NCBI GenBank assembly: GCA_914767715.1
Contig: OU612065.1
Coordinates: 39,492,001 to 39,556,000, forward strand
Length of the DNA stretch: 64,000 nucleotides
Source of the DNA: Membranipora membranacea
Taxonomy: Eukaryota; Bryozoa; Gymnolaemata; Cheilostomatida; Membraniporidae
Direction: 5' to 3'
Each line of letters begins with the position of its first letter. The stretch's first letter is position 1. A program made the position numbers and the translations under genes. The notes under the pieces are model-generated. The model had not been told where the DNA came from. It saw only the letters and a program-made list of their open reading frames with translations, and made no database searches. Shown piece by piece: positions 16,143 to 64,000 of this stretch.

Positions 16143-17484
16143 ATGATATATTACTAACTGAATCAAACTTAACATGTACTATTAGCTAATTGCACTAGTG
16201 ATTAGTGGATGAATATCAATCATTCTTTTAAATTGTGATATCTGAAGACAGTGTAGGAGTAAGACATCGACTTATGAAGTCGTAATGTAAATCCATTTCA
16301 CGCGCTCTTTTCGACTCGACCCGACTCGTACCTGAATATAGGGAAATTTCAGTGGCTCGGCTCATTTTCATTTTTTGCTGGCTCAATACAACACTAGCCA
16401 TAATATCATTATTATCGTCAATTCGCGATTTCTGTTGATTCTCCCAGTGCCCCAAATCAAATGGATGGGAGATATTATTTTGAACACGGATAGATGACTG
16501 CTTCAAGGGCATTTTTGTGCTATACTAACCACGTAGGCGCGCAATGGTAAATGGTAACTTAATTACCAATACAAGAAGGACACAGGGGTGTTTGGTTTAC
16601 TTGTCAGCGTGGCGAATGATGGGCAGCAGCTAAAATTATCCATTAGGTAGCAGATAGACCTTGCAAAATTAATTCTGCAATATTGCTGCCAGGTTTGTGC
16701 TGCTTAATCAGCAAGGAAAACCACACGTTCCCATTTTGCAACACCAATCTTTGAAATATACAGGGGGTGACATGTAGCTAACCAGAAGAGAACAATTTGA
16801 AAAAGCAGACTCAAGGCTTTGGATAATTAACATGTTAGGAAGAATAGTTTCTCTTAACTGTATGTTAGGGGTTGGAACATTTTTTTATTGATTTACTTTG
16901 AATGAACATTCAATCAGCTTGCCTGCCGATTTGGAGAATGTCATAAGTTCATAAGTTAGTTCTGTGATCACTCAAATTAATTTGAGCTGATGCTGCTGTA
17001 TTGACATGGTATTATTGTGCACAAAATGCTTTTGTTGAGCAATGTTCCTTAAATTCGACCGGCACCTCATTTTTGAGTGAGCGGCATTTAAAAAAAATAT
17101 ATCATGATGAATATATATATATATAGATATATGATATATCATTTACTGTGCATATAACTAAGAAAGCACAAAAAAAAGGATAAATATAAAGGTATCATAT
17201 TGAAACAGGATGAATACAATATTTATACTTAAATATTTATATAAGTAGTGAGGCAAGATGATCCTTTTTGCTTTGTAGGAAATGACATCATAGTCATCAA
17301 AATCTAACTTATGGTAAAAAAAATGGTAAAGTAAATAGTGTAAATGTGGAATGTACAATTGCGGAGTCATCGACTGGTTGTACTATGATATGAACTTCCG
17401 GCCTGTTTTAAAGTCATTGGTACCCAGAACTAATTGCAGAGTGTAATTCATCACATGTGATGATTGTGTAAGGTTTCAACAAGG

Positions 17485-21505: not shown

Positions 21506-24500
21506 TAGTCTATTGTCAGATGGCTCAAAAGTGTTCAAAATTTTCCTCTTGCAGAAAAAATGAGTATATACTTTGTGTTAATCTTTTCTGGGGTAATTTT
21601 ATATGCTAATTACAGCCAACATCATGTACCGTAAAAAAAGTGTCACCGAGTGAGGCAACGTCAGCGTTTGTCCCCCTTATATTATATATAAATATCTAAA
21701 GTGTTAGAATTTGCATTTGACTACTTTGGACTTTATATTTTTTGATTTATCATGGTTAGGCTTATTATTGAGGATGTTTGGCACAATATATTTCTAAATT
21801 TCTACTTATATTTACAATATATGGCATGTATTATTGTTTTTTCGCATAGTCGGAGGAGAAAACTCCTAGTTTAATCAATTTAACCATTTTCGGAATATAC
21901 TGGTGTATTCCTGACAAATTGAAAAACCCATGCGATTAGTAAATGACCCAGAGTATATGTGCTGTACATGAAAAGTGGCCACATACTATAATAAATATAA
22001 TAACTATAGGCTTCAAATATATACTTGAGAGTACCTGTACTGATATTATTAGCAAATGCAGCTGTCCATACTGTAATTTATTACAATATGTACTGACGAT
22101 CTACGCAAAAGAATATTATACTACTAACTGCCTCAAAAACAAAGGTTCAAACACATAACATGCATACGCTGCTACCAATGCATAGTTATATTTCATCATC
22201 GTCATCACTTTCCTCCGCACTGTCCATAGCGACACTGCGGTGGTTACAGTCACGGCAACCACAGAGGGCTGTGCACTTCATTCCTCCTTTCAAACATGAG
22301 CATCGGTTGCCAGTGCATGGGTTTGCCTTGCATTGACATTTCTTGGCTTTCATTATTGATTTGGGCGGGCCATCCATCCATTTAATCTTTAGATCTCCTC
22401 CTTCCTCTTCCCATCCATTGCCATCAGGATTTTCAGCTCTGATCATTGGTTGAAGAGCCGATAGCCAGATTTTGGACTGATAGTCTGCTCGTTTGGTGTG
22501 CAGTAGTAAGCAATCAGCGTTCGGTGGTAGAGCTTTCTCAGTCATGCCATTCTTGAATGCATCAAATCGAGCATCACTGATGTTTGAAGCGCTGCTACCA
22601 TACAATGCACAGGTCGATTTCTCAATTCCTGGGGGAAGTGAGGAGAGAGCAAACTCCTTTCCTAGCAGCTGCAGAGCAGTGATGTGGTCATCATTGGCTT
22701 TAGACCTTTCTTCTACTTCAGACCTGGTTTGAGAAAAGCAAACAATACATGCATGTACCACTAGATTAAGGTATGCCAAAAATTGAGCTAGTGGCGTTTT
22801 CGCTATCGACCTCCAATAAGAGAAAAAAGAATAAATTGATACTAAAATGCCACTAGCTCCACTTCTGGCAAAATTTATTAGGGTACTTAAACTAATGGAG
22901 ACTGCCGGTATCCTACATACCACCCGACATATAATGTTGGTAACACCCAGGTTTTAAAGCAGAAGTAGGTCTTATGGACAGGTTCTTTAATCTTATCAAT
23001 TTAATAATATCTGCTTGCTTTATCAATACTTACAGTGAAGCAGGTTGAAGTTGCTCAAGCCTCCGCTTGTATGCCATAACATATTTGCTCCTACATGAGA
23101 GATGATATTGAGCATCAGCGGCAGCTATGTCGTGTGATTGTGAGCTGACAAAAGAGAGTAGCTGCTGATCCTCCATGAATCGTGCGGCTTCTATCAATTC
23201 ACCTGAAGACATAACTGTTTTACTCGTGACGAGGCAAAAAGTATTGAAAGTTTGCGCAATTAGGCTACAGTATGTTTACCGATATTTCTCTATAAGATAG
23301 TTTAGGCACGCTAAGCCTCGCCAAATTGGAACTAGTACAACGCTACTAGCTTCACTTTTAGCAAAGTTTAGCGCATCTAAATTACCTGTAGGCCCCATCT
23401 GCCTTCAATCAGTCTTCAAGGGAATTACATGTATATGTCCGTCATCAGGACATCATTTTGTAGTACGGTGCACATCAATGCAAACCTTACCTCCTTCTAG
23501 TGTCTGAATCTGATGGAGTTGCTCTCGCCTTTTGTTTACATATTTTGTCTCCTTCCGACAGACCACACATACTTTGGGTAGCGTGGGACCAGGGTTAATA
23601 TGGGTCTTTGCCTGAGACCTAGTGTACTTTGCTGACACCGTCGTGCTGACATTACATATGTCTTCCTCAGGCTCATCATATTCCTATAGAACAAGAAACA
23701 CCAATTAGGTATACATCTTTGTAGCAGGACCACAAATAAAAATGGAATATTGTTTCTGGTAAAATACATATGGGTACAAATTTACAATAGATATATTATA
23801 ATTATTATGATGTGAAACTGAAGAAAAGTAAACTCACAAGCAGCCTAAGGGCACAACTTCTTACACTGGCTTATTGTGTGAGTTTGGTTGGTGATCCAGA
23901 GGTCACTTGCATTTTAATTAATGATAAAATTGAGTCAAAAACTTATTTCAGAAATTCAATTCAGTGCTGACCACTAGACCTTTCTATAATGTAACTTAAG
24001 TACATTAGTAAGAGACAGGTTTGGTTGGTAAGCACTCACTTCTATCTTCCTTTTGGTTGACTTTGCAGCCGCTTGTATTTTGCTGTCACTAGCAAATCTG
24101 AGCAGACATCCTGGAAAGTGGAAGTGGATGATGATGGCTCCTTATCTATGGCTGCCCATTTCTCAGCAGCACTGATGACTTTCTTCAGCTTTTCTTCACT
24201 CCTCAGTTGTACTAGGGTCTCCACTGAGCCTTTATGCTCTAAATGGCACACACACTCCATCCTACTTATGCACAAAACCTGCTAGCATGATGAAGAAAGC
24301 AACATTTTCTAATAAAAACAAAATTCTCAAATCATCCAGCCTCATTCTGAAAAAAGTAAGCTAAGATCTTACATCCAAAACGGATATCCAATGCAGTCAC
24401 TCATACTGACTTAAGAAAAATGGTTATTTTAGCAACTCAATTTGAAAATGAATTAAAAAGGGGATAACTCCTTAAATTTGAGAGTAATTTGGAATTTATA

Positions 24501-33539: not shown

Positions 33540-34500
33540 CAGTTTCATGATAACAGTATTTACTAGGTAGCGGACTGAAACTTTCAAAATTAATTCAGCA
33601 AGATTGCTGCCATGTTTGTGCTGCTTAATCAACAAGGAAAACCATACATTCTTTTAAATATACAGGGGGTGACATGTATCTAACCAGAAGAGACAATTTG
33701 CAAAAGCAGGATCAAGGCTGTAGATAATTAACATGTTAGGAAATAAGTTTCTCTTAACTATATGTTAGGGGTTTAAACACTTTTTTATGTGATTTATTAT
33801 GAATGAAAATTCGATCAGCTTGCCAGTCAATTAGTAGTGATCACTCAATTAATTTCAGCTGGTGCCGCTGTGTTGACATTGTATTGTGCACGAAATGCTT
33901 TTATTGAACTATGTTCCTTAAATTCAACCGGCACCTCATATTTGAGTGATCGGCATTTTATAAAAATATAAAATGATATATATACATATATATAAATATA
34001 TGATATATCATTTAATGTACATTATCAAGAAAGCACAACAAATACAGGATACATATAAAGGAACCACTTTGAACCAGGATATATTTATTTAAGTGGAAGC
34101 TGGTTTATATACAAAACATCCTACAGAGCTGGCCATTGACTGGAAGTCATTAGGACTTCCCTTCCTCCCAGTTCATCATTAATTTTGTTCTTTTAATATT
34201 TGCCATCCTTTCTTCACAACAATTCCCGAGTTAGCGAAAATGATGGCTATGTTGTCACTTCCTTTAGAAAGCAGCAAAGTTTATGTTTTTGCCGTACTAG
34301 TAATACAATCTGTGTATTAATCCTGGTTGCTGCTTCCTCTGTAGTTTTTCATCCTGGTTCAGCTTGCAAAAACCACTAATTTCCAGAAGTGCAATGAGAG
34401 GACTGTTGAAAATATAAACAAAACAGCTTCACAACATTACATACATTTCTTACAATCGCGCTGTAACACTGTTAAGCCCTAGTATAATTTAGCACTATTT
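33540..34500. repeat. duplicated intergenic block, copy B
   Basis: 33560-34030 matches 16640-17150 and 36510-37020. At 34080 it jumps to sequence matching 13940-14340, including a relic of a peptide-gene promoter at 34105-34161 on the minus strand: the gacttccagtcaatggccag block and kappaB-like AGGACTTCCC (34152-34161) are kept, but the TATA box is degraded (tttatatac). No signal or mature exon remains, so the gene body was lost. Confidence 0.7.
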
Positions 34501-34863: not shown

Positions 34864-35110
34864 GGAGTAGGAGGTAGCTCAGTTGGTTAGAGCGCCGGAC
34901 TTCAACATGCAAGTGTTGAAGGTCGTGGGTTCGAATCCCATTGCAGTCTATCTTCTACTGGGGATTGGTTGGCCCCCAGGTGTGCTCCGACCTGCCTACA
35001 AACAGATAGCAAATTGGCGCAGATATTGCGGCCTCGCCTATAAAAGGCAAAAATATTTCACCGCCCATGCTTGGGATGGGGGAATGATAAGACATCCAAT
35101 TTTAATCAAC
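34864..35110 (+). mobile_element. tRNA-derived SINE, copy 2
   Basis: Intact-looking A box (tagctcagttgg, 34875-34886) and B box (ggttcgaatcc, 34928-34938), then the same body as copy 1 (ggttggcccccaggtgtgct). The 3' part runs into a (GGA)n tract. The head resembles a tRNA with an inserted region, so it is a SINE and not a tRNA gene. Confidence 0.85.
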
Positions 35111-35689: not shown

Positions 35690-37240
35690 TTTGCAAAATG
35701 TTAATTTCTTACAATGGCGCTGTAACACTGTTAAGCCCTAGTATAATTTAGCACTATACATATATTACATATAACCAGTTGGTCAGGAGCTCAGTACCAG
35801 AAGTGCTGCACAGCAGCAATAAGGGAGGTGGAAGAGCGTATGCTAGAGTCGTACTCATACTGCATTCCATGCCCCTATAATGTTGGACAATGATAAACAG
35901 AATTAAAATTGTAAGACATTCATTATTGTACGCTAAACTATCGCTCTTCAAGGTGCCAGATAATTTTATATGATTAGCTTGAAATTGCTAGATAGATACT
36001 GTAATACGGAAAGATTGCTGTGTCATATATTCTCTTCACCCCACCCTCCTAAAACACAAGCAAATACTTTTCACTACATGAGAAGATCCTTCCACTAATT
36101 AATGATCTTTGTCTACACTGAGGACTGTCCTTAATAGCACCACACCCGCACTTTACAAGATTGTTATCGAAAAGTACCACTGACCTTTCACTAGTAAAAA
36201 GGCAAACAAGTGTCAGTTTATCTTTTGGGTTCACTGATGTTAACAATACGAGAAAGAAACAGACTATTTTACTTGAAAGTTATATCCACAATAATATCAT
36301 TAATATCATCAATTCGCGATTTCTGTTGATTCTCCCAGTGCCCCGAATCAAATAAATGGGATATATTATTAAAAACATGTAAAGATGACTGCTTCCACGG
36401 CATTCTTGTGCTATACTAACCACGTAGGCATACGCTGGTAACTGGTAATTCAATTGCCAATGCAAGAAGGAAACGGGAGTGTCAAATGATGGGCAGCAGC
36501 TAAAAGTATCCATTAGGTAGTAGATTTAGCTTGCAAAATTAATTCTGCAAGATTGCTGCCAGGTTTGTGCTGCTTAATCAACAAGGTAAGCCATACATTC
36601 CCATTTTGCAACACCAATCTTGATAACCATGAAATTTACAGGGGGTAACATGTAGCTAACCAGAAGAGAAAAATCTACAAAAGCAAGATCAAGGCTACGG
36701 ATAATTAATATGATAGGAAGATCAGTTTCTCCAAACTATATGTTAAGGGTTCAATCACTTTTTTATTTTCAATAAAAATTCATCAGCTTGCCTGCGGAGC
36801 TGGAGAAAGTCATATGTCAATTAGATAGTTCTGTGATCACTCAATTAATTTCAGATGGTGCCATTGTGTTAACATGGTATGATTGCGCACAAAATGCTTT
36901 TATTGAACAATGTTCCTTAAATTCAACCGGCACCTCATATTTGAGTGAGCGGCATTTGAAAAAAATATAATTATCATGATATATATTATATATGTATAAA
37001 TGATATATCATTTAATGTGCATAAAACTAAGAGAGCACAACAAAAACAGGAAAAATATAAAAAAAAAACATATTGAAACAGGATGCATACAATATTTATA
37101 CATAAATATCTATAAAAGTAGTGAGGCAAGATGATCCATTTTGCTTTGCAGGAGATGACATCATAGTCATCAAAATCTAATTCATTGTAATAAAAAGGAC
37201 GGCAAATATAAATAGAAGGCTTTATTTGCTAATGACAATG
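35690..37240. repeat. duplicated intergenic block, copy C
   Basis: Collinear with 14290-17370 minus the hAT-like element, giving the empty-site allele for that insertion (ccacaataatatcatt at 36288). It ends at the promoter of the intact plus-strand peptide gene. Confidence 0.75.
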
Positions 37241-37247
37241 GGAAGAA

Positions 37248-37306
37248 GGAAAATCCTAATAACTTCCAGTCAATTGACTGCTCTGTAGAGTGTTTTGTAT
37301 ATAAAG
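37248..37306 (+). promoter_or_regulatory. promoter of cationic-peptide gene C: kappaB-like site, conserved block, TATA
   Basis: GGAAAATCCT (37248-37257) is the complement of AGGATTTTCC, a kappaB-like decamer. It is followed by aacttccagtcaattgactg (37261-37280), the block shared with copies A, B and D, then TATATAAAG (37298-37306). The start site should lie near 37328. The order and spacing are the same in all four copies. Rel/NF-kappaB control is an inference. Confidence 0.55.
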
Positions 37307-37673
37307 CAGCTTCATCTATGATTAGCCATCAGTCTTCCATTCCGCAACATCTCAGGAAATCTCTTACTATCTAACTGTAAGTATATGGTTTTGAAACAAA
37401 CTTGGTGACCCTTTTTGGGGCTAGATAGCAGGGAAACTCTTCTAAGAAATCAATCTTGGTATTCAGATTTAAATGCTATATTATATTATAGCTTGTGATG
37501 TAGTATATGTAGATATCCTGACATTTGACATGCATGTCCAACATACGTACAGCGTGATTGTGAAAATATAAAACAAATTAATTTGATCCCTTGCACTGAG
37601 AGATCAGTAATAAATACTATAAGAATGTATTTATGCTCACTCACATATATGCTCTTTGAACTCTTAGGAAAGA

Positions 37674-38096
37674 ATGAAGGTATTCGGACTTGTAACCCTG
37701 TTCATTGCTGCTGTCGGTAAGTTCGGACTTTGTCAATGGCTCTCCTTTGAGTAATGTAGAAATGTGGAATTCAATGTTGTTTAAGATCAGATACAATGCA
37801 TTTAGAGATAACACATTCTTAGTTGACTTATTGTGTAATATACAACATTGCTGAGGTCATAGACAGCTGCAATAAGCAGAAGAGATGAAGCCATTTTAAA
37901 ACACAACCCACAATGTGATAACCTTGCTCCAGTCATCCTGATGTTTACCCGTCCTAACTGGGCCACAATTAACCTCAGTTTGTTTTTATTTTCAGCTGTC
38001 ACTCAGACTGAGGCTGGAATCTTTAGCTCCATCAAAAAAGCTGTAACCAGTCCAGTTGGTAAAGTTGTAACATCTGTTATATTTAAAAAAAAATAA
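37674..38096 (+). CDS. cationic secreted peptide, 47 residues (copy C, intact)
   Basis: Three exons: 5' non-coding (about 37328-37376, donor aact|gtaagt), signal exon (37668-37716, acceptor ctcttag, ATG 37674-37676, donor gtcg|gtaagt, phase 1) and mature exon (37996-38096, acceptor ttttcag, TAA at the end). AATAAA is at 38173-38178. The signal is MKVFGLVTLFIAAV; a short VTQTEA spacer follows, then a segment that starts GIFSSIKKAVTSPVGKVV and ends in three lysines. The last 26 residues have six lysines, no acidic residue and no cysteine, and can form an amphipathic helix, like linear antimicrobial peptides. I know of no named family with this sequence. Antimicrobial action is inferred from composition, promoter and duplication pattern. 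Confidence 0.7.
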
Positions 38097-38829
38097 GTGT
38101 TTGTTTTTTCCCTTGACAATATCATGTGAGATCTCAGTCAGACTGATAGTAGACGTTTTGATTGTAGACATGAATAAAACATGGTAATTATGAACAAGAA
38201 AAGACTTATACATATTATTTTCTTTATTCATCCACTTTATTAACTGACAAAGATTATTGGAGGAGTTTTGCGTATAAGACAGTGTGGTACATCAAGTAGT
38301 AAGGCCTCTGTTTACAGCAAAACTATGTTTGCTGAAACAGAGAGCTTTAATCATCTTTCTTAAGTGATTCAGATATCATTGTGATTCTGAAGCCTATTTT
38401 GAAGAGAAGTCAAGTTTACAATAATCACGCTGCAAAGAATTCATAATTACTGATGCCAAAGTAGAATTATCTGAAAGCGAAACAAAGTGCAAGAGCATAA
38501 TACTTGAATACAAGTAATAATGCAATTCAATCATAATTGGTCCTTGTTGAAACAACTGGCAAAATCACAAAATCTTAGTCCTCAAAATGATCAATAGTTC
38601 TTGAGAATGCAAGGAAAATCAGTAACAGTTGAATAAAGGGCAGAACAGTTACAAAGCGGATGAGATCAATTTGGGAGGTGGATTGCTTAGTGATTGTCAT
38701 TTACAATAATAGCTGTTGATGATGGTTTCTGCTGTCTTTAGGTTCTCTTTTTCATGGTTCACAACAAATGTAGTCTCAGTTCACTCCTAAATATGAACAT
38801 TTTCATTACGAATATCCACTATTATCTTC

Positions 38830-43599: not shown

Positions 43600-43900
43600 C
43601 AAAATACTAAGGAAGTAAGGTCATAAAAAAGATGTGTATAATAAGGGATGGCAATAAAAGTAACTTATTATATTATTGAAAATGTATGTATCTTTCCCTT
43701 GACTATATTATGTGAAACATTAAACTCAAACTGAAGTTTTATTGTAGACAATAAATACAACATGGTTATGTGCTAGAAAACATTGTTTATTCTTTAATGG
43801 TGTTAGGAAGATAAAAGTGGATATTCGCAATGAAAATGTCCATATTTATTGGTTATCATTGATACTTCATTTGTTGTGTACTGTGGGGAAGTGAGAGTGA
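43600..43900 (+). pseudogene. relic of a cationic-peptide gene 3' end (copy E)
   Basis: 43630-43770 resembles the end of the mature exon and 3' UTR of copies C and D (tattattgaaaatgtatgta, cccttgactatattatgtga, attgtagacaataaatacaa), and 43790-43870 resembles their downstream flank. No signal exon can be found upstream. Confidence 0.45.
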
Positions 43901-51300: not shown

Positions 51301-54300
51301 GTACTTTCAGAAAACAACTCAATAACAGTAGAAGATTACGGTAAAAATGCTCCAGTTATAAAGCACCCATTTGAAAAAAAAATGACAATGATGGGTTTCG
51401 AACTATCACTGGGCAGACGCTCTATACACTGAGCTATTCAGCCATTCAGCCATTCACGGAAATCCGTGGTCCGTTATTGGTAATATACGTCACTGAAATG
51501 GTGGTACAGCAATTACCATCACAGTTGCTCAGCTAAGACAAGCTGCAAATGTGACAAAGAAGACCCGATCTGTTTGTATGTTCAGGACGATTTATATAAT
51601 TCATCAATAAATAATTGGCAAAATGTCACCTGTGGAGTGAACAAGCCAGTGCAATACGCAGCCAGTCCCAAACCTGGATGAAGACAGAGGGTTCGGCGAC
51701 AGGAAGAGCATCCGGCCGATGAAACACCCCGGCCTCAAACCAATATGCTTAGAAACCAACAGAAAGCAAGATCAAGGACTGTAAAGTGATCAAGGGAGAA
51801 TCTGTAGCGTCACAACATCGGCTCCTGGTGGTTGAAATTTTAGCAAAGAAGAATGAGAGAAGATCCAAAGAAGATTAGCTGGTGGAAGCTCAGAAAGCCG
51901 GAAGGAGAAGAACTGATAGAGAAGCTGAGTGAAAAGCTAGATGGAATCTATACTGAGGAAGGATTGCAGTGGGCGGAGACTTATCCAATGGTTATGGAGG
52001 CAGCAAAGGAGATACTCGGAGAGTCAGTGGCAGGAAAGTACTTAGAGAAAAAGTCTTGGTGGTGGAATGAGGGAGTACAACCAGCAGTAGAAGAGAAAAG
52101 AGATGCATGGAAAGAATGGAAAAGAGCAAGTGAAGATAACAAAGAAGAAGCAAGAGAACGGTACATCAGCCTGAACAAGACAAGCAAGGAAAAGGTGGCC
52201 GCAGCAAAAGAAGCAGCATCAGAAAACTTATACAATGAAATAGAGAGGAATGGACCAAAGATCATCCACCGCCTAGAAAAAACTAGACATCGGAGACCTA
52301 CGGATATTGACAGAATCCCTTTTGTCAAGGACATAGATGGAAAGATTTTGTGTGAAGATGAGCAAGTCAAGAAGAGATGTAAAAATGTTTTCAATGGTCT
52401 AATAAATAATGAGAACAGCAAGGAGGAACTGCCCCTGCAGTTGCCAGTACAAGGGCCAGTACCCAAAATCAATGAAGAGGAAGTTAACATCCAGATAGGA
52501 AAGATGAAACCCAACAAAGCCACAGGCCCAGACCAACTACCAATAGACATCATAAAGCTGTTGAAAGAGAGAGGAAACACCTGGATGACAGCGTGTTTAA
52601 ACAACATCGTCTTCGAAAGGATACCACTAGTCTGGAGGGAGAGCACAATAACACCAATATATAAGCAGAAAGGAGACCCTTTAGACTGCAGAAATTATCG
52701 GCGGATTAAACTGTTGAGCCACTGCCTTAAGCTACAGGAGAGGATAATTGTGCAGAGAATCAGAGAGTTAGTCACTATCAAGGAAAACCAGTATGGATTT
52801 CAGAAGGGAAAATCAATCACAGAGCCCATATTCTGCCTCAGAATTCTTCAGGAGAAACACAGAGAGTACAACAAAGCTCTTCATATGGTGTTCGTAGACC
52901 TTGAAAAAGCCTATGATACCACACCACGTGAGCTGGTATGGTTTTGCTTACGAAAGCGAATGGTTCCAGAGCAGTACATCGACATCATCATAGACATGTA
53001 TGAAGACTGTAGCACCATTGTTAGGACGGACTCCGGACTGACAGACAAGATTCACATTGAAGTTGGATTACATCAAGGATCGGCACTAAGCCCGCTGCTT
53101 TTCATCATAATAATGGATGTTATAACAGAAGACATAAATGAGGACAGCCCATGGGCAATGTTATTTGCTATTATCTGGCCCTTTGCGATAGTGATCGAGA
53201 GACCAGAGAGAATTTCAGAGATCTGGAGAGAGAAGCTGGAGGCAGCTGGATGGAAGATAAGCCGAAAGAAAACAGAGCATTTGCCAGCAGTTGGAGACCA
53301 AGAGAACATCAGGATGAAGAAGTATGGGAGTCAAGAAGCGGAAAGCCTGCCTAAATGTTCTCAGTTCAGGTACTTGGGCACAACAATCCGCCAAGATGGA
53401 GGTTGCCGCAAGGAGATAGAGCTTAGAATATCCAAGGCTTGGAATAAGTGGAGAGAACTGACTAGTGTGCTCTGTGACAAGAAAATGCCTGCTAAACTGA
53501 AAGTGCTGATGTATAAAACAGCTATCAGACCAGCTCTGCTGTATGGAAATGAGACATGGCCAATAACAGGATCTCTGGCGGATAAGATGTCATCCTGCGA
53601 GATGCGAATGTTGAGATATTGTATGGGCATAAGTCTAGAGGACCACAAGAGAAATGAGTAAATAACAGCAGAGTGATGCCAATTAAAGATTTGATGAGGA
53701 GAAAGAGAATGCAGTGGTATGGGCATGTTAGACGGAGAGAAAGTGGAGGACGACATCCGGAGAGTGTCAGAGATGACAGTCGAAGGAGTGCGACCTAGGG
53801 GTAGACCAAAACAAAGATGGTGCGACACGGTGAACTCAGACCTTAGATGGCTTGATCTAGATGGATCAGATGCTGAAGATCGAGTGCGATGGAGGAATTG
53901 GTAGAACTGGGGATTAAGCAGAAACCCGCCACCCGCGAAGACCACGGCGGTGAAAGGTGACCAAAGGTGACCATCAATAAATAATTGGCAAACAATTAAC
54001 AGGTCAATATAACACAATTATTATCATCATTCTTAATCTCTTAAACTCTTATAGTCACTTGGTCATTTCTCAGGCTTTCCTATTTATTCAGTGAACGTGT
54101 TTGGATTGGGACAATTGAATTGATTTGTTTGGTTTGCTCTAAAAACCAGATAAAAGACTCACTTATGTGGGAAAAATAGTCTATTCTTCCTTGCAGATGG
54201 CCAAAGAAGGTATCGAAACCCCTATTCTGTGGTAAATATTCTTCCTGGTACATTCCAATATGCCATTTACCTGCAAATAAAAACAAAAGAAAAGTTAATA

Positions 54301-55187
54301 ATGGCAGATTTTTAGAGATATAACTTTGTTTTGATTCATGCTTGGTTTTTAGATTTATCTGCATGAGAATCGTCAAACAACTTATGAATAACTTTGATTA
54401 TCATTTTATTGTCCGGCGCTATATCAAATAACGTGAACATTTAAGGTTTTTCAAGGTGAAGCTTTTTAATTGCAACATCTAATGTAGCTTCAACTACAGT
54501 GAAATCTAAAAAATTCATCCGATTATAATTTTATTTTATCAATAACTTTCAAGCTCTTACAGGGACTGAGCATATTCGACTCACCAATCATATGCGTGTC
54601 GTATCCATATTTCTGCAACTGTTCAGGAAGCAGAGTGAAGTTTAGGTTAAGTCCATGTGGTTGTGGAGCTTGGAAATTTCTGCTCTGAAGTCCAGTGTGT
54701 ATCGGGTATCGCCCTGTCATATAGAAAAGAAAGACACTCAGTGCTCCCAAGACCCAATGTTGTGGCTGATTTGCGTTGCAGTTTTCTCGCTGGTTATGAT
54801 GCAGCATGTGCATAACATTATAAAACTAGCCCTAATTACTCACTTTATATGGTGCAACAGAAATCATTTTACACTATGCTATGACATTGATTGTTCCCAC
54901 TTACCAGTCATAAGAGCTGATCGTGATGGTGTACACCCGAACTGAGCATAATAGTTGTCCAATATGATTCCATTCCTAGCTAGACTGTCCATCACTGGGG
55001 TCTTGAGCGCTTGCCCAGCACCCCCATTGTAACCAATGTCTGGATATCCGATATCATCAGACAAAACAAAGATTATGTTGGGACGATTTTGTCTTGTGGA
55101 CCCTCTCCAGGGTTCACTGGTTGCTACTGCTTGGCAGAATAATGTGAGGAGGAACAACGCCAACAAACAATATATCTGTTGTAACAT
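48357..55187 (-). CDS. arylsulfatase B/I/J-type sulfatase, ten coding exons
   Basis: Exons (minus): 54905-55187, 54585-54713, 54163-54270, 50925-51064, 50574-50700, 50171-50350, 49818-50008, 49352-49514, 48730-48863, 48357-48539. All junctions are GT-AG and the phases add up to exactly 546 codons with the stop, close to human ARSB (533). Residues 1-22 form a signal peptide. The signature [11 protein letters not shown] places the formylglycine cysteine at residue 85; DD at 44-45, GKWHIG (K139, H141), H237 and SGDNG (D295, N296) supply the metal and substrate site. Such enzymes hydrolyse sulfate esters, classically of N-acetylgalactosamine 4-sulfate in glycosaminoglycans, in lysosomes or secreted. 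The exact substrate cannot be read from sequence. Intron 3 (51065-54162) holds an RTE-like insertion on the opposite strand. Confidence 0.92.
51105..51250. repeat. GC-rich hairpin repeat
   Basis: Contains the hairpin cacgccgtaggcgtgg and gggagggtgtgggaggggcc followed by cctcccaccacggaaattt. The core matches 4680-4725 within the MITE at 4614-4898, in an otherwise AT-rich intron. A dispersed repeat family; boundaries unclear. Confidence 0.6.
51396..51470 (-). mobile_element. tRNA-derived SINE remnant
   Basis: The minus strand reads aatagctcagtgtatagagc (A box) and gatagttcgaaacccatc (B box), 30-40 bases apart. A tandem ttcagccattcagccattca adjoins it. Located in sulfatase intron 3. Confidence 0.6.
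51623..53971 (+). mobile_element. RTE-like non-LTR retrotransposon in sulfatase intron 3
   Basis: Bounded by a 21-bp perfect direct repeat (51602-51622 and 53972-53992, core atcaataaataattggcaa), read as the target duplication. It contains a long RT frame but no AP endonuclease. The first 230 bp are non-coding, with cggcgacaggaagagcatcc. The end is gtgaccaaaggtgacc, with no poly-A. It is transcribed opposite to the host gene. Confidence 0.85.
51853..53661 (+). pseudogene. RTE-like reverse transcriptase, catalytic box lost
   Basis: The 602-codon frame has the RTE-type linker ([14 protein letters not shown]), [44 protein letters not shown] (motif A aspartate), [18 protein letters not shown], and the thumb region [16 protein letters not shown] and [11 protein letters not shown]. 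Where FADD should be it reads [13 protein letters not shown]. The next frame there reads [12 protein letters not shown], so a one-base loss near 53170 and a compensating change near 53215 have replaced about 15 residues, including both aspartates, while keeping the frame open. A shift at 53660 separates the C-terminus, seen at 53680-53904 as [20 protein letters not shown] and [12 protein letters not shown]. Confidence 0.85.
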
Positions 55188-55204
55188 TGTGGCAGCTGAC
55201 CTCT

Positions 55205-55915
55205 TACCGATGCACAGATGAGATCTCTGACAATTCTTCCACTGATCATTGGGGTTCTATATCATCTGACTCTGAGAAAATAGTGGTCACCTGACCCAAT
55301 GAACTCCCTCTTCATTGCCTGACCTATACAGTCACAGAGGACTGCTAGCTATCCTCACTGGATATTAGAGACTGTAGTAGTCCTCACCTACACATCGGCA
55401 CGCATCAATGATCAATCTTATGAAATATGATGAGTTTATTATTAGGATCGTGGAGATTAAGGGCATTATTTGACAAAGGGTTTATTATCATGAATCTGAA
55501 GGCCTAGAGCATTGATCTGGCTTAAGAGTGAAAGATGAGTGTTTAGTTGATAATGCTGTGACTGTCACTGCCATCCAATAATCCAATAGTTATTGTCATC
55601 AGATTCAGTGTTCATTTGCGTCACAATGCCTCAATGTTGTTTTGATCATTCTTTATTCTGAAGGATGAGAATAAAATACCGATGCACAGATGAGATGACA
55701 ATTGGCAGATAAGATAACGACCCCCACCTAAGATAGTGATCCTTAAACTACTGTATACACATCGGCATATGATGAGTTCATTATTAAGATGGTGGAGATT
55801 AAGGGGATTATTTGACCGGGAGGGTTGCATATCATGAATCTGAAGGCTTAGAGCATCGTTCTGGTTTAAGAGTGAAAGATGAGTGCTTAATTGATAATGC
55901 TGTGACTGATACTTC
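55205..55915. repeat. tandem duplication upstream of the sulfatase gene
   Basis: 55205-55560 and 55678-55915 are related copies, sharing ccgatgcacagatgagat, ggtggagattaagggga, tcatgaatctgaaggc and gttgataatgctgtgactg with substitutions and gaps. They lie directly upstream of the start codon, so they probably contain the promoter region and possibly 5' UTR. No clear TATA box. Confidence 0.7.
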
Positions 55916-59158: not shown

Positions 59159-60550
59159 AACATACCTCACATCATCTCGTGATATAGCCTGCTACCTCAC
59201 ACCATCTCGTGATATAGCCTGCTACCTCACACCATCTCGTGATATAGCCTGCTACCTCAGACCTCTTGTTATATAGCCTGCTTCCTCACACCTTTTGTGA
59301 TATAGCCTGCTTGCTGACACCATCTCGTGATATAGCCTGCTACCTCTCACCTCTTGTGATATAGCCTGCTACCTCACACCACTTGTGATATAGCCTGCTT
59401 CCTCACACCTCTTGCGATATAGCCTGCTTCCTCACACCTCTTGCGATATAGCTTGCTACCTCACACCATCTCGTGATATAGGCTGCTACCTCACACCTCT
59501 TGTGATATAGCCTGCTACCTCACACCACTTGTGATATAGCTTGCTACCTCACACCTCTTGCGATATAGCCTGCTACCTCACACCTCTTGTGATATAGCCT
59601 GCTTCCTCACACCTCTTGTGATATAGCCTGCTTGCTGACACCATCTCGTGATATAGCCTGCTACCTCTCACCTCTTGTGATATAGCCTGCTACCTCACAC
59701 CACTTGTGATATGGCCTGCTTCCTCACACCTCTTGCGATATAGCTTGCTACCTCACACCTCTTGTGATATAGCCTGCTTCCTCACACCATCTCGTGATAT
59801 AGCCTGCTACCTCACACCTCTTGTGATATAGCCTGTTCCTCACACCTCTTGTGATATAGCCTGCTACCTCACACCATCTCGTGATATAGCCTGCTACCTC
59901 ACACCTCTTGTGATATATAGCCTGCCACCTCACACCTCTTGCGATATAGCCTGCTACCTCACACCACTTGTGATATAGCTTGCTACCTCACACCATCTCG
60001 TGATATAGCCTGCCACCTCACACCTCTTGCGATATAGCCTGCTACCTCACACCACTTGTGATATAGCTTGCTACCTCACACCTCTCGTGATATAGCCTGC
60101 TACCTCACACCTCTCGTGATATAGCCTGCTACCTCACACGTCTTGTGATATAGCCCGCTACCTCACACCTCTTGTGATATAGCCTGCTACCTCACACCAT
60201 CTCGTGATATAGCCTGCCACCTCACACCTCTTGCGATATAGCCTGCTACCTCACACCACTTGTGATATAGCTTGCTACCTCACACCTCTCGTGATATAGC
60301 CTGCTACCTCACACCTCTCGTGATATAGCCTGCTACCTCACACGTCTTGTGATATAGCCCGCTACCTCACACCTCTTGTGATATAGCCTGTTACCTCACA
60401 CCATCTCGTGATATAGCCTGCCACCTCACACCTCTTGCGATATAGCCTGCTACCTCACACCACTTGTGATATAGCTTGCTACCTCACACCTCTCGTGATA
60501 TAGCCTGCTTCCTCACACCTCTTGTGATATAGCCTGCTACCTCACACGTC
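59159..60550. repeat. 29/30-bp minisatellite with 204-bp higher-order repeat
   Basis: About 47 units of the form ctacctcacacctcttgtgatatagcctg. Unit types differ in the middle: ccatctcgtg (30 bp) or cctcttgtg, cctcttgcg, ccacttgtg, cctctcgtg, cgtcttgtg (29 bp). From about 59991 a seven-unit block, one 30-bp and six 29-bp units, repeats every 204 bp (ccatctcg units at 59991, 60195, 60399). Because units are 29 or 30 bp, no frame stays open through the array. It ends at the inserted CR1/L2-like element. Confidence 0.95.
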
Positions 60551-61290
60551 TTGGTTGGTTGGTTGGTTTATTTTGTCACAAACCTTAGGTATGCTGCGAG
60601 ATTGAGTGTTTATACTGTTACATGAGTAGGGAATACCAAAAAGAAACATAAACAAAATGAGTAAAGTAAAGTCTGACTTCTAGTGGATTAAAAAATATCT
60701 TGCAATATCAAAATCAAGTGTCTGAGGAATGAGTCTTTACCCCAGGCAGTTCTGTATTTAAGGCTGCGATATCTGCCTGAGGGGAGTTTCTCAAGAAAAT
60801 TGTTTAAAAAATGTTCGTCATCATGTATTATCTGCAGGGCCAGGTTCTTTGTACGTTTTGATATTACTGAATCTAGGTCCCCAATATCAAGACCTAGTCT
60901 GTCGCCTTGCTTAAAAAACTTTCTCAGAGCTTTCTTGTCTCGTGAATAAATACTAGTGATTAAAAATAGGTAGGCAGTAGGTTAGAATGGATACAATAAA
61001 ACTTTTAAATAACATGCAGGCTAAAGGCTTTGTACTCTGATAATTAAACGTTCTGATGACAAACATTCTCTGATTTGCTTTGGATACAACATTATTGACA
61101 TGATCTTCGAAACGTAATTTGTTATCAAAGAGAACTCCCAAATATTTAACATTGTCACAAAAATCTATTTTTACACCATTTAATTCGAGAGTAGGACTGT
61201 CAGGTTTATCTCTCTTAGTGGAGAAAAGCATCTCTTGGGTTTTAGAAGGATTAAGTAATATATATATTCCATGTTTATTCTGGAGAAGAA
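60551..61290 (-). mobile_element. CR1/L2-like retrotransposon, 3' part, with (CCAA)n tail
   Basis: The minus strand encodes LLNPSKTQEMLFST, VKYLGVLFDNKLRFEDHVNN and, after 60953, a continuing frame ending LPSGRYRSLKYRTAWGKD and LILQDIF with TAA near 60695; then a 3' UTR and tail acaaaataaaccaaccaacc that abuts the minisatellite. Same family as the fragment at 3498-3815. Its 5' side meets the next element at about 61280-61300. Open at the protein level but only the C-terminal third is present. Confidence 0.8.
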
Positions 61291-61299
61291 TAAGTCCTT

Positions 61300-64000
61300 A
61301 GGACTTGTACCCAGAAAACAGAAAAATTGATAAAAATATGGTGTAGAATTAAAAAGACATGTAACTAAAAATCAAGAACAACGACAGGTAAAATTACAAC
61401 GTACACGCAGGCATTAATTAGCAGTAAAACATTACACAAGTTGATACACAATAGCTAGGAAAAGAAAAGTTAGAACAATGTAGCAGTAGGCTAAAATGAA
61501 ATGATAAGAACTGACTCATTAATTGAGAAGTTTGAGGACGTGGCTCCGAGTGGCATTTTTGAATGTAGCAAGGGATTGACTCAGCTTAACATGATTGGGT
61601 AATTCGTTAAACTTCTGAGCACCGAAATTAGCTAAAGCAAATCTAAAATTTTCCTTGGATAGTCTAAACCCAGAACTTTTAGCAAGCCGAGTTTCACTAG
61701 TTAATTTCTCGGGGAGCAGATTGGTATCAATTATTGGGACTAAACTATTAACAATTTTATAAAACGTCAGCAGATACAAATATTCGAAACGCAAAGTTAA
61801 AACAGGGATGTTGTAGGTCTTTCGAGTATTATCTTTAGAACTGTTATAGTCTATAATTTTCAAACATCTATTCTCAATTTTTAAAAATTCTTTTTTGACA
61901 TAGTCGTTTGTGGTAAATAAAACAGGAGAGCTGTATTCCAGATTAGAACGTATAAGTCCAATTTACCAAAGCTTAGCTAATTTAGGTGTCAGGAATTTTC
62001 TATTACGTTGAAAGTTGGTGACTATTGGATAAAGTTTTTGTTTAATTTTACTGGTATGATATTTAAAATTTAATTTGTTATCAAGAATCACACCTAAGTA
62101 CATAATTTTGTCAGATTGTTTGAAAATGAGATTATTAAATTTAAGTTCCGGAGGTTTGATGTTACGTTTATTAGAAATGGTCATGACATCCGTTTTACCG
62201 CTGTTTAGAACAAGGCAATTTTCACTGTACCAACTGGATGCTTGATGAATGCTTTTTTCCATAAGTTTTGTGGAAATGTCTGGGTTTTCCCCACTGGTGA
62301 CTAGTAGGCAGTCATCAGCATATAGATAACAATTTTTGAGCTCCATCAGATCGTTAATAAACATGATAAACAGGAGTGGTCCAAGTACAGACCCCTGCGG
62401 CACGCCAGTTATAACTCGACTGCATTCAGATACACAACCATTAACTTTCATGGCCTGCTCTCGACTTGAAAGATAATTTTTAATTAAATTTGATGCATTA
62501 GAGTGGAAATTGAATTTCGTTAACAGTTTACTGGCAAGGATCTTATGGTTTACGCAATCAAAAGCTTTACGGATATCAAGTGCAGAAACTGTGACAAATT
62601 TTGACTCGTGCTTTGACAGCAGGGAACGAAATTTGTTGACTAGTTGAGTTAAAATTTGATCAGTGGATGTTCCATTTCTGAAACCAAATTGGCGAGAGGC
62701 TATTAGATCATTAATTTCCAGGTAATCACGAATTTGGTAATTTATTATCTTTTCTAGGACTTTACTTAATATTGGCAATAGCGAAATTGGTCTATAATTA
62801 TTTGGCAAACTTTTCTTGCCACTTTTGAAAATTGGAATTACTAAGGCTTTTTTCCACACATCTGGAAACTCTTGACATTTAAGGCTCAGATTAACAATAT
62901 GTGTCAATGGATTCAGAATCAAAGGCTCTAGGATTTTATAAATAAAGGCAGGGATCTGATTTAATCCCCCAGTTTTACGTGATTTCAATGTGTGCAGATA
63001 TTTAGACACCTCACTCGATGTAATTTCTTGACAAGCAAATTTTAGGAAACTGAAAGCTTTATCATTATCAAAGCCTGAGTAACTTTTATTGGACAATAGT
63101 TTAGCCTCTTCATTGAGATTGGCACCAATGCTAGAAAAATACCTATTTAGACATTCAGCGATCACTGGGCTTTCAGAAGTGTTGCAATTTTCAGATTCAA
63201 TTTCTTGAATGACATTATTGCCTTGATAATTTTTACCTTGGAAAATTTTGATTTTTTGCCATTGGTCTAATGTTTTATCATTAAGAACTGCTCTCATTGC
63301 TTGCTTTTTGGCATCTCTTACTGCATTTGTTGCCTTGTTACGGATCAAACGATAATGCTCCCAGGCAGTAGAATTTTTATCAAATCCCGTCTCAACAAAC
63401 TTTTGAAATGCATCTTTTTTAAGGCTTGTTAGTTTAGATGCCACTGGACACTTCCAACAAAGATTGTTTTTTTGCTTTAAGCGTTGGGTTTTAAATGGTG
63501 CAAACTGCTCCACCAATAATTCTATTTTTGATTCTAAAATATCTGCTGCTTCGTGAACACAGTGAACATTCTCTACAATATTAAAATCGAGAGATTTCGC
63601 ACTATTAAAAAACTCAAGATCATCAAAATTTCTGAAATCTCGCTTAGTGACATAAGAAAAGCCGGCCTTAGGCCTTTTTAGATTAACTTTCATTTGAATT
63701 GCAAAATGATCACTAATATCACTTTTTATAACCTTGTGTTCAGGTACTAAATTTTGAACATTTGAGAAAAGTAAGTCGATCGTAGTATTGGAATCTTTAA
63801 AACATCTAGTATACTCTCTAACGAGCTGTTCATATTGATGAAGTCTCATAAGGGTTTCAAGATTTTCTTTCGCTTGTGAATTACAGTTGGCTTTCGTAAA
63901 TTGTGAGCATCCAATAGCTTTTCAAAATTACAGGAAACATCGGTGCTTGCAACACAAGGTGGATTGTAAACAAGGACCAAACAAAATCTAGACTCAGCAA
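61300..64000 (-). mobile_element. CR1/L2-like retrotransposon, second element, runs off the window
   Basis: Minus-strand element with about 200 bp of 3' UTR (61300-61518), an RT coding region and the end of an endonuclease domain reaching the window edge. A different lineage from the element at 60551-61290, judging by the diverged C-terminus. The upstream piece at 63900-64000 reads RFCLVLVYNPPCVAS, the start of the endonuclease, but is out of frame with the main coding stretch. Confidence 0.8.
61519..63890 (-). pseudogene. CR1/L2-like endonuclease/reverse transcriptase, one stop
   Basis: From about 63890 the frame reads LETLMRLHQYEQLVREYTR, TTIDLLFSNVQNL and SDISDHFAIQ (the SDH end of the endonuclease), then PNNYRPISLLPILSKVLEKI, RQFGFRNGTSTDQILTQL, VSALDIRKAFDCVNH, TGVPQGSVLGPLLFIMF and CYLYADDCLLV, so both catalytic aspartates are intact. 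A single TAA at about 61963 (KLAKLW*IGLIRSNLEYSS) interrupts an otherwise open frame to TAA at 61519. The few lesions suggest a young copy. It lacks a full endonuclease within this window. Confidence 0.85.

What the first reader, a model, noticed from the sequence alone, without database searches (positions are those of the whole stretch)
37248..38178. Candidate new family of short cationic secreted peptides
An intact three-exon gene encodes a signal peptide, a short spacer and a roughly 26-residue segment with six lysines and no acidic or cysteine residues. Paralogues lie at 13.2-14.0, 38.8-39.8 and (relic) 43.6 kb. Composition, tiny size, clustering and a strong TATA promoter resemble inducible linear antimicrobial peptides. 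I recognise no described family.
Basis: partly seen in the sequence, partly recalled or inferred. Interest (0 to 1): 0.88.

Follow-up and report, generated by a model that had tools for sequence, protein, structure and literature searches.

The report
Large family of short secreted peptides
The window holds one intact gene for a tiny, positively charged, probably secreted and helical peptide that resembles a natural antibiotic; it belongs to a large, apparently undescribed gene family in this animal, many of whose other sampled members are neutral or acidic, so an antibiotic role is plausible but unproven.

Summary
Gene g1 (37298-38178, +) has a TATA box, a non-coding exon, a signal exon and a mature exon with GT..AG introns. 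It encodes 47 residues ending in a 26-residue, +6, Cys-free segment. g2 (antisense) has lost its stop, g3 is a pseudogene, and two relics remain. The family is far larger than the window: the exon-3 start occurs 183 times in the 339-Mb assembly, against 2 for the reversed-pattern control. No named relative was found in a 5.8-billion-protein set, Pfam, PDB or the paper texts searched; six unnamed metagenome frames match. The window's branch (clade A) is cationic: 7 of 8 sampled members meet published helical-window criteria for linear cationic antimicrobial peptides, against 3 of 18 sampled members of clades B-D and 696 of 5000 random window 26-mers. AlphaFold gives helix-kink-helix for g1. In seven clade B copies exon 3 differs 4-5 times more than the introns, at silent sites too, which points to exchange of exon blocks rather than dN>dS. 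Best reading: membrane-active host-defence peptides. A real coding family is very likely; the antimicrobial role is about even odds. Species, transcripts and activity were not established.

The parts
37298..37306 (+). g1 TATA box; a CTTCCAG element lies at 37263-37269
   Evidence: TATAAA in 12 of the 14 clade A promoters aligned, TATAAT in the other 2
37331..37376 (+). g1 exon 1, non-coding (start inferred from the TATA/initiator spacing)
37668..37716 (+). g1 exon 2: 6 nt of 5'UTR, then ATG (37674) and 14 codons + 1 nt of signal peptide
37996..38178 (+). g1 exon 3: end of signal, mature segment GIFSSIKKAVTSPVGKVVTSVIFKKK, stop 38094-38096, 3'UTR, AATAAA 38173-38178
   Evidence: related frame P0121 identical at 28 of 32 residues
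38827..39789 (-). g2: antisense copy with TATA, exon 1 ~39715-39670, exon 2 39374-39326, exon 3 from 39047; one nucleotide fewer than g1 in the lysine run, no stop there, open to 87 aa
13208..14016 (-). g3: pseudogene; exon-2 acceptor and donor lost, 46-column gap in exon 3, early stop
34096..34161 (-). promoter-only relic (TATA kept, no exons found)
43680..43780 (+). 3'UTR-only relic

Best explanation
g1 is an intact member of a large superfamily of short, Cys-free, probably secreted peptides with one plan: TATA promoter, non-coding exon 1, a signal exon of 14 codons + 1 nt, a phase-1 intron, and one exon for the mature peptide. Signal peptidase most likely cuts after TEA (inferred from the -3/-1 rule; a cut after AVA is also possible), releasing a +6 helix-kink-helix peptide. 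Like other linear cationic helical peptides it would bind acidic microbial membranes and disrupt them as part of host defence. Clade A is the cationic branch; the amplified clades B-D carry mostly neutral to acidic amphipathic segments, many ending in Gly (a possible amide donor), and may act on other targets or together with A. Shown: gene plan, family size, coding constraint, charge. Predicted: helix. Inferred: cleavage, secretion, membrane action, immune role.
For: Exon-3 start 183 hits against 2 in the control; signal-exon pattern 32 against 0. 7 of 11 exact clade A signal exons lead to an open exon 3 with intact splice sites. g1/g2: dN/dS 0.022/0.132 in the signal and 0.028/0.339 over the first 16 mature residues. 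Mature charge of clade A +2 to +6 in 8 of 8, and 7 of 8 pass the published helical-window criteria against a background of 696/5000. AF2 on exon 3 with P0121: pLDDT 81, helices 2-17 and 19-31 with a break at Ser-Pro. One clade A member resembles the aurein model N-terminally, E 0.24, below its cut-off.
Against: No transcript, peptide or activity data. The 18 sampled clade B-D segments are -5 to +3 and only 3 pass the same criteria. The g1 hydrophobic moment is not exceptional at 100 degrees (P 0.36) and only borderline at its best angle of 88 degrees (P 0.047). The AF2 model rests on two sequences and its helix also covers the VTQTEA stretch taken as signal. Only one of the three gene copies in the window is intact. 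The loose C-terminal third of the mature part and small counts make the g1/g2 tests weak.
Confidence: 0.5

Rival explanations
1. Amphipathic secreted peptides with a non-immune task (allomone or venom component, mucus or surface-active coat, egg or gamete coat), with cationic clade A as a side branch.
For: Most sampled clade B-D segments are neutral or acidic. At C7:2.574-2.636 Mb, 9 of 10 spacings between 11 exact exon-3 starts are 6.03-6.13 kb (positions), as for genes amplified for dosage.
Against: All 8 sampled clade A segments are positive and 7 of 8 fit the published antimicrobial helix criteria.
Confidence: 0.26
2. A decaying gene family or sequence spread by repeats, with g1 a recent relic that happens to be open.
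For: g2, g3 and two relics in the window are damaged; 3 of 10 exon-3 places read are broken; the sequence upstream of g1 is a repeat also found at 16.4-17.3 kb.
Against: 7 of 11 clade A genes are clean; 20 of 23 separately fetched exon-3 places are open (7 of 10, 13 of 13); signal and exon 3 are more conserved than introns.
Confidence: 0.12
3. Signalling peptides (neuropeptide- or hormone-like) released from a minimal precursor.
For: Small precursors; 16 of 18 sampled B-D segments end in Gly, which could be amidated.
Against: No repeated units between dibasic sites in the precursors read; mature segments vary in length, charge and sequence within one genome, unlike a ligand held to a receptor.
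Confidence: 0.06

Closest known systems
[quoted passage not shown] abstract and sections 5 and 10 read)
   Same: Short secreted precursor, conserved signal peptide with variable mature part, Cys-free cationic helix window; g1 falls inside the published charge, hydrophobicity and moment limits
   Different: g1 is 47 aa (the screen took 50-100) and has no acidic C-terminal region, which 17 of 22 Ciona candidates have; no sequence match was tested against these peptides
Styelins and botryllin of ascidians (PMC9966394; abstract and passages seen)
   Same: Secreted helical cationic peptides of a marine invertebrate
   Different: Botryllin comes from a 158-aa pre-propeptide and keeps a KHK motif with styelins; g1 has no propiece after the mature segment and no His
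Insect cecropins (recalled)
   Same: Signal followed directly by a helix-kink-helix cationic peptide; A|G cleavage context
   Different: No Pfam cecropin match to g1 at E <= 1; 26 rather than about 35-39 residues; intron plan differs as I recall it
Frog-skin aureins (recalled; Pfam PF08256)
   Same: Weak N-terminal match of one clade A member, GIFDSIKKVV, E 0.24
   Different: 10 residues, below the cut-off; convergence at most

Membership tests
This superfamily (clades A-D) | Signal exon of 14 codons + 1 nt, phase-1 intron, exon 3 starting A-[VI]-x-Q-[TI]-[ED]-A-G | tested here: met
   g1; other copies. Some members deviate, e.g. D-A-S and D-A-A on C3 and C9
[quoted passage not shown]
   g1: 9 of 9 windows (limits; hydrophobicity values recalled)
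[quoted passage not shown]
   g1 precursor is 47 residues
[quoted passage not shown]
   Predicted only: two helices, pLDDT 81, two sequences
[quoted passage not shown] aggregation and localisation filters | not tested
   No such predictor on hand; N-terminus judged by eye
[quoted passage not shown]
   Needs the synthetic peptide
Styelins/botryllin | KHK motif and propeptide after the mature part | tested here: not met
   g1 has no His and ends with the mature segment; motif and precursor as given in passages of PMC9966394
Cecropins | Match to the Pfam family | tested here: not met
   Not among families at E <= 1 for g1
Aureins | Match above the Pfam cut-off | tested here: not met
   12.4 bits against a cut-off of 20.6, for one clade A member, not g1

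The most novel reading that the evidence does not exclude
A cassette-based peptide repertoire: one conserved signal exon and gene plan serve many exchangeable mature exons (183 exon-3 starts in the genome), swapped by recombination in the flanking intron and inside exon 3, so that one animal holds a mixed set of cationic and acidic amphipathic helices that may work in combination.
Probability: 0.3. Interest if true: 0.78.

Novelty: new variant of a known kind. Interest (0 to 1): 0.58.

Why it matters
If true, an animal lineage carries a large, apparently undescribed set of minimal secreted helices whose precursor is little more than signal plus mature peptide. It would let one ask how charge and sequence diversify under a fixed signal exon, and offers new antimicrobial leads. 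It also suggests why such genes are missed: 47 codons over two coding exons are easily passed over by gene callers, and the only database matches were raw frames from metagenome sets.

Tried and rejected
Searches without a relative: g1 against the protein set, PDB sequences, Foldseek on the g1 model, Rfam on the window, viral contigs, prokaryote contigs. One search's null is weak: P0121, found later by the profile, shares many 5-residue words with g1, so one search should have listed it. Pfam hits to family members were all below cut-off: Surfac_D-trimer for g1, DUF735 and aurein-like for others. PADLOC, PHROGs and NCBIfam were not searched. Peptide strings in the paper library: 0 papers. Topic searches: one search listed 15 of 16 papers, of which I opened two; one search listed 3 and one search listed 1, none opened and none naming this family in title or shown abstract.

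Organism not named. The LINE at 61963-63921 has its closest relatives (85-98% identity for the top three) in unlabelled sets. Among the 120 of 3471 hits listed, one bears an animal name (Hydractinia, 31%) and two bear names of bacterial MAGs. The cellulose-synthase profile, a tunicate marker as I recall, had no match. A COX1 search was sent 17 times and never answered. A genome-size paper search gave no candidate.

Rejected: dN>dS as cause of clade B exon-3 divergence, because silent sites diverge more (pS 0.155, pN 0.076). The 3- and 12-nt exon-3 indels are in frame, but the one intron-2 indel in these copies (57 nt) is also a multiple of three, so this is no contrast. Rejected: g2 as a clearly working second gene.

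Full report
What is in the window. Both introns are GT..AG. g2 (minus strand) keeps its splice signals but has one nucleotide fewer than g1 in the lysine run, has no stop there, and reads on to 87 residues, past its conserved polyadenylation signal; it may not be a working gene. g3 has lost the exon-2 acceptor and donor and has a 46-column gap in exon 3. A promoter-only relic lies at 34161-34096 (minus) and a 3'UTR relic at 43680-43780.

Is it coding? g1 against g2: coding part of exon 2 42/43 identical, exon 3 up to the lysine tail 72/85 with no gap, introns 173/277 and 181/259, 3'UTR 57/75, promoter 50/57. Exon 3 thus exceeds the introns but not the promoter. dN/dS is 0.097/0.208 over 44 codons, 0.022/0.132 in the signal and 0.028/0.339 over the first 16 mature residues; the rest of the mature part is loose. 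With 15 substitutions the tests are weak: P 0.05 for amino-acid identity, P 0.20 for third positions.

The family is far larger than the window. The window lies on C1 of an assembly of 339,339,785 bases in 18 contigs; the g1 protein matched 6 places, on C1 and C7. One is a recent duplicate at C1:39.725 Mb, 97% identical over 2 kb and one residue different. The promoter/exon-1 DNA matched 13 places on C1, C3, C9 and C10. The signal-exon pattern, up to 2 mismatches, gave 32 hits (11 exact, 21 with two) against 0 in the reversed control. The exon-3-start pattern, up to 2 mismatches, gave 183 against 2; the first 100 are listed, 70 of them exact, and 83 places were not shown.

Reading the members. 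Of the 11 exact signal exons (clade A) 7 lead to an open exon 3 with intact sites (g1, its duplicate, two on C7, one each on C3, C9, C10; the C3 one ends in a shifted frame), 1 on C3 has a shortened exon 3, and 3 are damaged (g2, g3, one on C3). A further C7 copy with a truncated signal exon and a stop was seen. Of the 21 two-mismatch places, 19 had loci and all 19 read as signal plus open exon 3: clade B (C7:1.1-2.9 Mb, 14) and clade C (C7:10.7-10.8 Mb, 5, one of them with a diverged exon 3); 2 were not read. I then fetched 23 exon-3 places. In one search, 7 of 10 are open and 3 broken, and clade D appeared (C1:32.5-33.1 and 37.3 Mb). In one search, 13 of 13 are open. A matching signal exon lay inside the stretch in 7 of 10 and 8 of 13.

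Relatives elsewhere. g1 alone found nothing, but that null is weak, since P0121 should have qualified. The 14-sequence profile found 6 at E <= 10 among 1675 candidates, none with an informative name. P0121 is a clade A exon 3 identical to g1 at 28 of 32 residues, with the same KKK end. P0122-P0126 are clade B/C exons; E-values run from 4.8e-7 to 0.2, the last two (0.067, 0.2) being secured only by identity to exons read here. None begins with the signal exon, so none is evidence of splicing or transcription.

Chemistry. In one search I scored 26 distinct mature segments of my choosing: clade A 8 (including P0121), B 6, C 5, D 7. Damaged copies, duplicates and a few near-variants (among them L048, L050, L056, L075) were left out. 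Net charge: A +2 to +6, B -5 to 0, C 0 to +3, D 0 to +3. With limits from the methods of PMC7387483 (section read; hydrophobicity values recalled) 7 of 8 A pass, the eighth being too short for a window; B 0 of 6, C 2 of 5, D 1 of 7; random 26-mers from window frames 696 of 5000. 16 of the 18 B-D segments end in Gly. The g1 moment is not exceptional at 100 degrees (P 0.36) and borderline at its best angle, 88 degrees (P 0.047). AF2 on the 32 exon-3 residues with P0121 gives pLDDT 81 and two helices broken at Ser-Pro; the first helix also covers the VTQTEA stretch. A clade C frame gave one helix at low confidence (67.5). Foldseek on the g1 model found no PDB match.

How the family changes. In seven of the 14 clade B loci (chosen as distinct; two with a replaced exon 3 left out) pairwise differences are 2.2% in promoter/exon 1, 1.2% and 1.4% in introns, 1.3% in the signal exon and 6.6% in exon 3. 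Exon-3 silent sites differ more than replacement sites (0.155, 0.076), so exchange of exon-3 blocks between diverged copies fits better than positive selection. L048 looks like an L038-type start joined to an L046-type end; L050 has two exon-3 modules behind one signal exon. Between 11 exact exon-3 starts at C7:2.574-2.636 Mb, 9 of 10 spacings are 6.03-6.13 kb and one is 6.46 kb (positions). Among 14 clade A promoters TATAAA stands in 12 and TATAAT in 2; CTTCCAG about 35 nt upstream is in 7 of 14 (g1, its duplicate, g2, g3, two relics, C10), altered in one, and not seen in the C3 and C9 copies, but it recurs at like spacing in clades B and C.

Interpretation. Shown: a coding superfamily with a fixed signal exon and variable mature exon, without a named relative in what I searched. 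Inferred: cleavage after TEA, secretion, membrane activity, defence. For clade A the host-defence reading is the best single one (0.5). The neutral and acidic clades are the main fact against a plain 'cationic antimicrobial family'.

Noticed in passing
window 37000-37196, 17131-17323, 16400-17323: The stretch just upstream of g1 is a repeat shared at 84-88% with 16.4-17.3 kb.
   Followed up: no
window 61963-63921 (-): Reverse-transcriptase frame of 652 aa (LINE-like, PF00078); best database match 98% identical over 79%, unlabelled.
   Followed up: partly
window 54080-55256 (-): Exon-like frames of a sulfatase gene; one above the Pfam cut-off, one below.
   Followed up: no
window 22186-22953 (-): Frame with a weak CXC (tesmin-type) match below cut-off.
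   Followed up: no
window 59163-60553: Tandem array of a 29-bp unit, about 48 copies.
   Followed up: no
window 34870-34900: GGTAGCTCAGTTGGTTAGAGCGCCGGA resembles a tRNA-derived SINE head (judged by eye); Rfam gave no match in the window.
   Followed up: no
L050 (C7:2.903 Mb): One signal exon followed by two exon-3 modules, 329 nt apart, with different mature segments; alternative splicing is conceivable.
   Followed up: partly
L007 (C7:4.069 Mb, -): A more distant gene with the same plan, MKIIALVSLVMAGLAVVQIEG..., suggesting further members beyond clades A-D.
   Followed up: no
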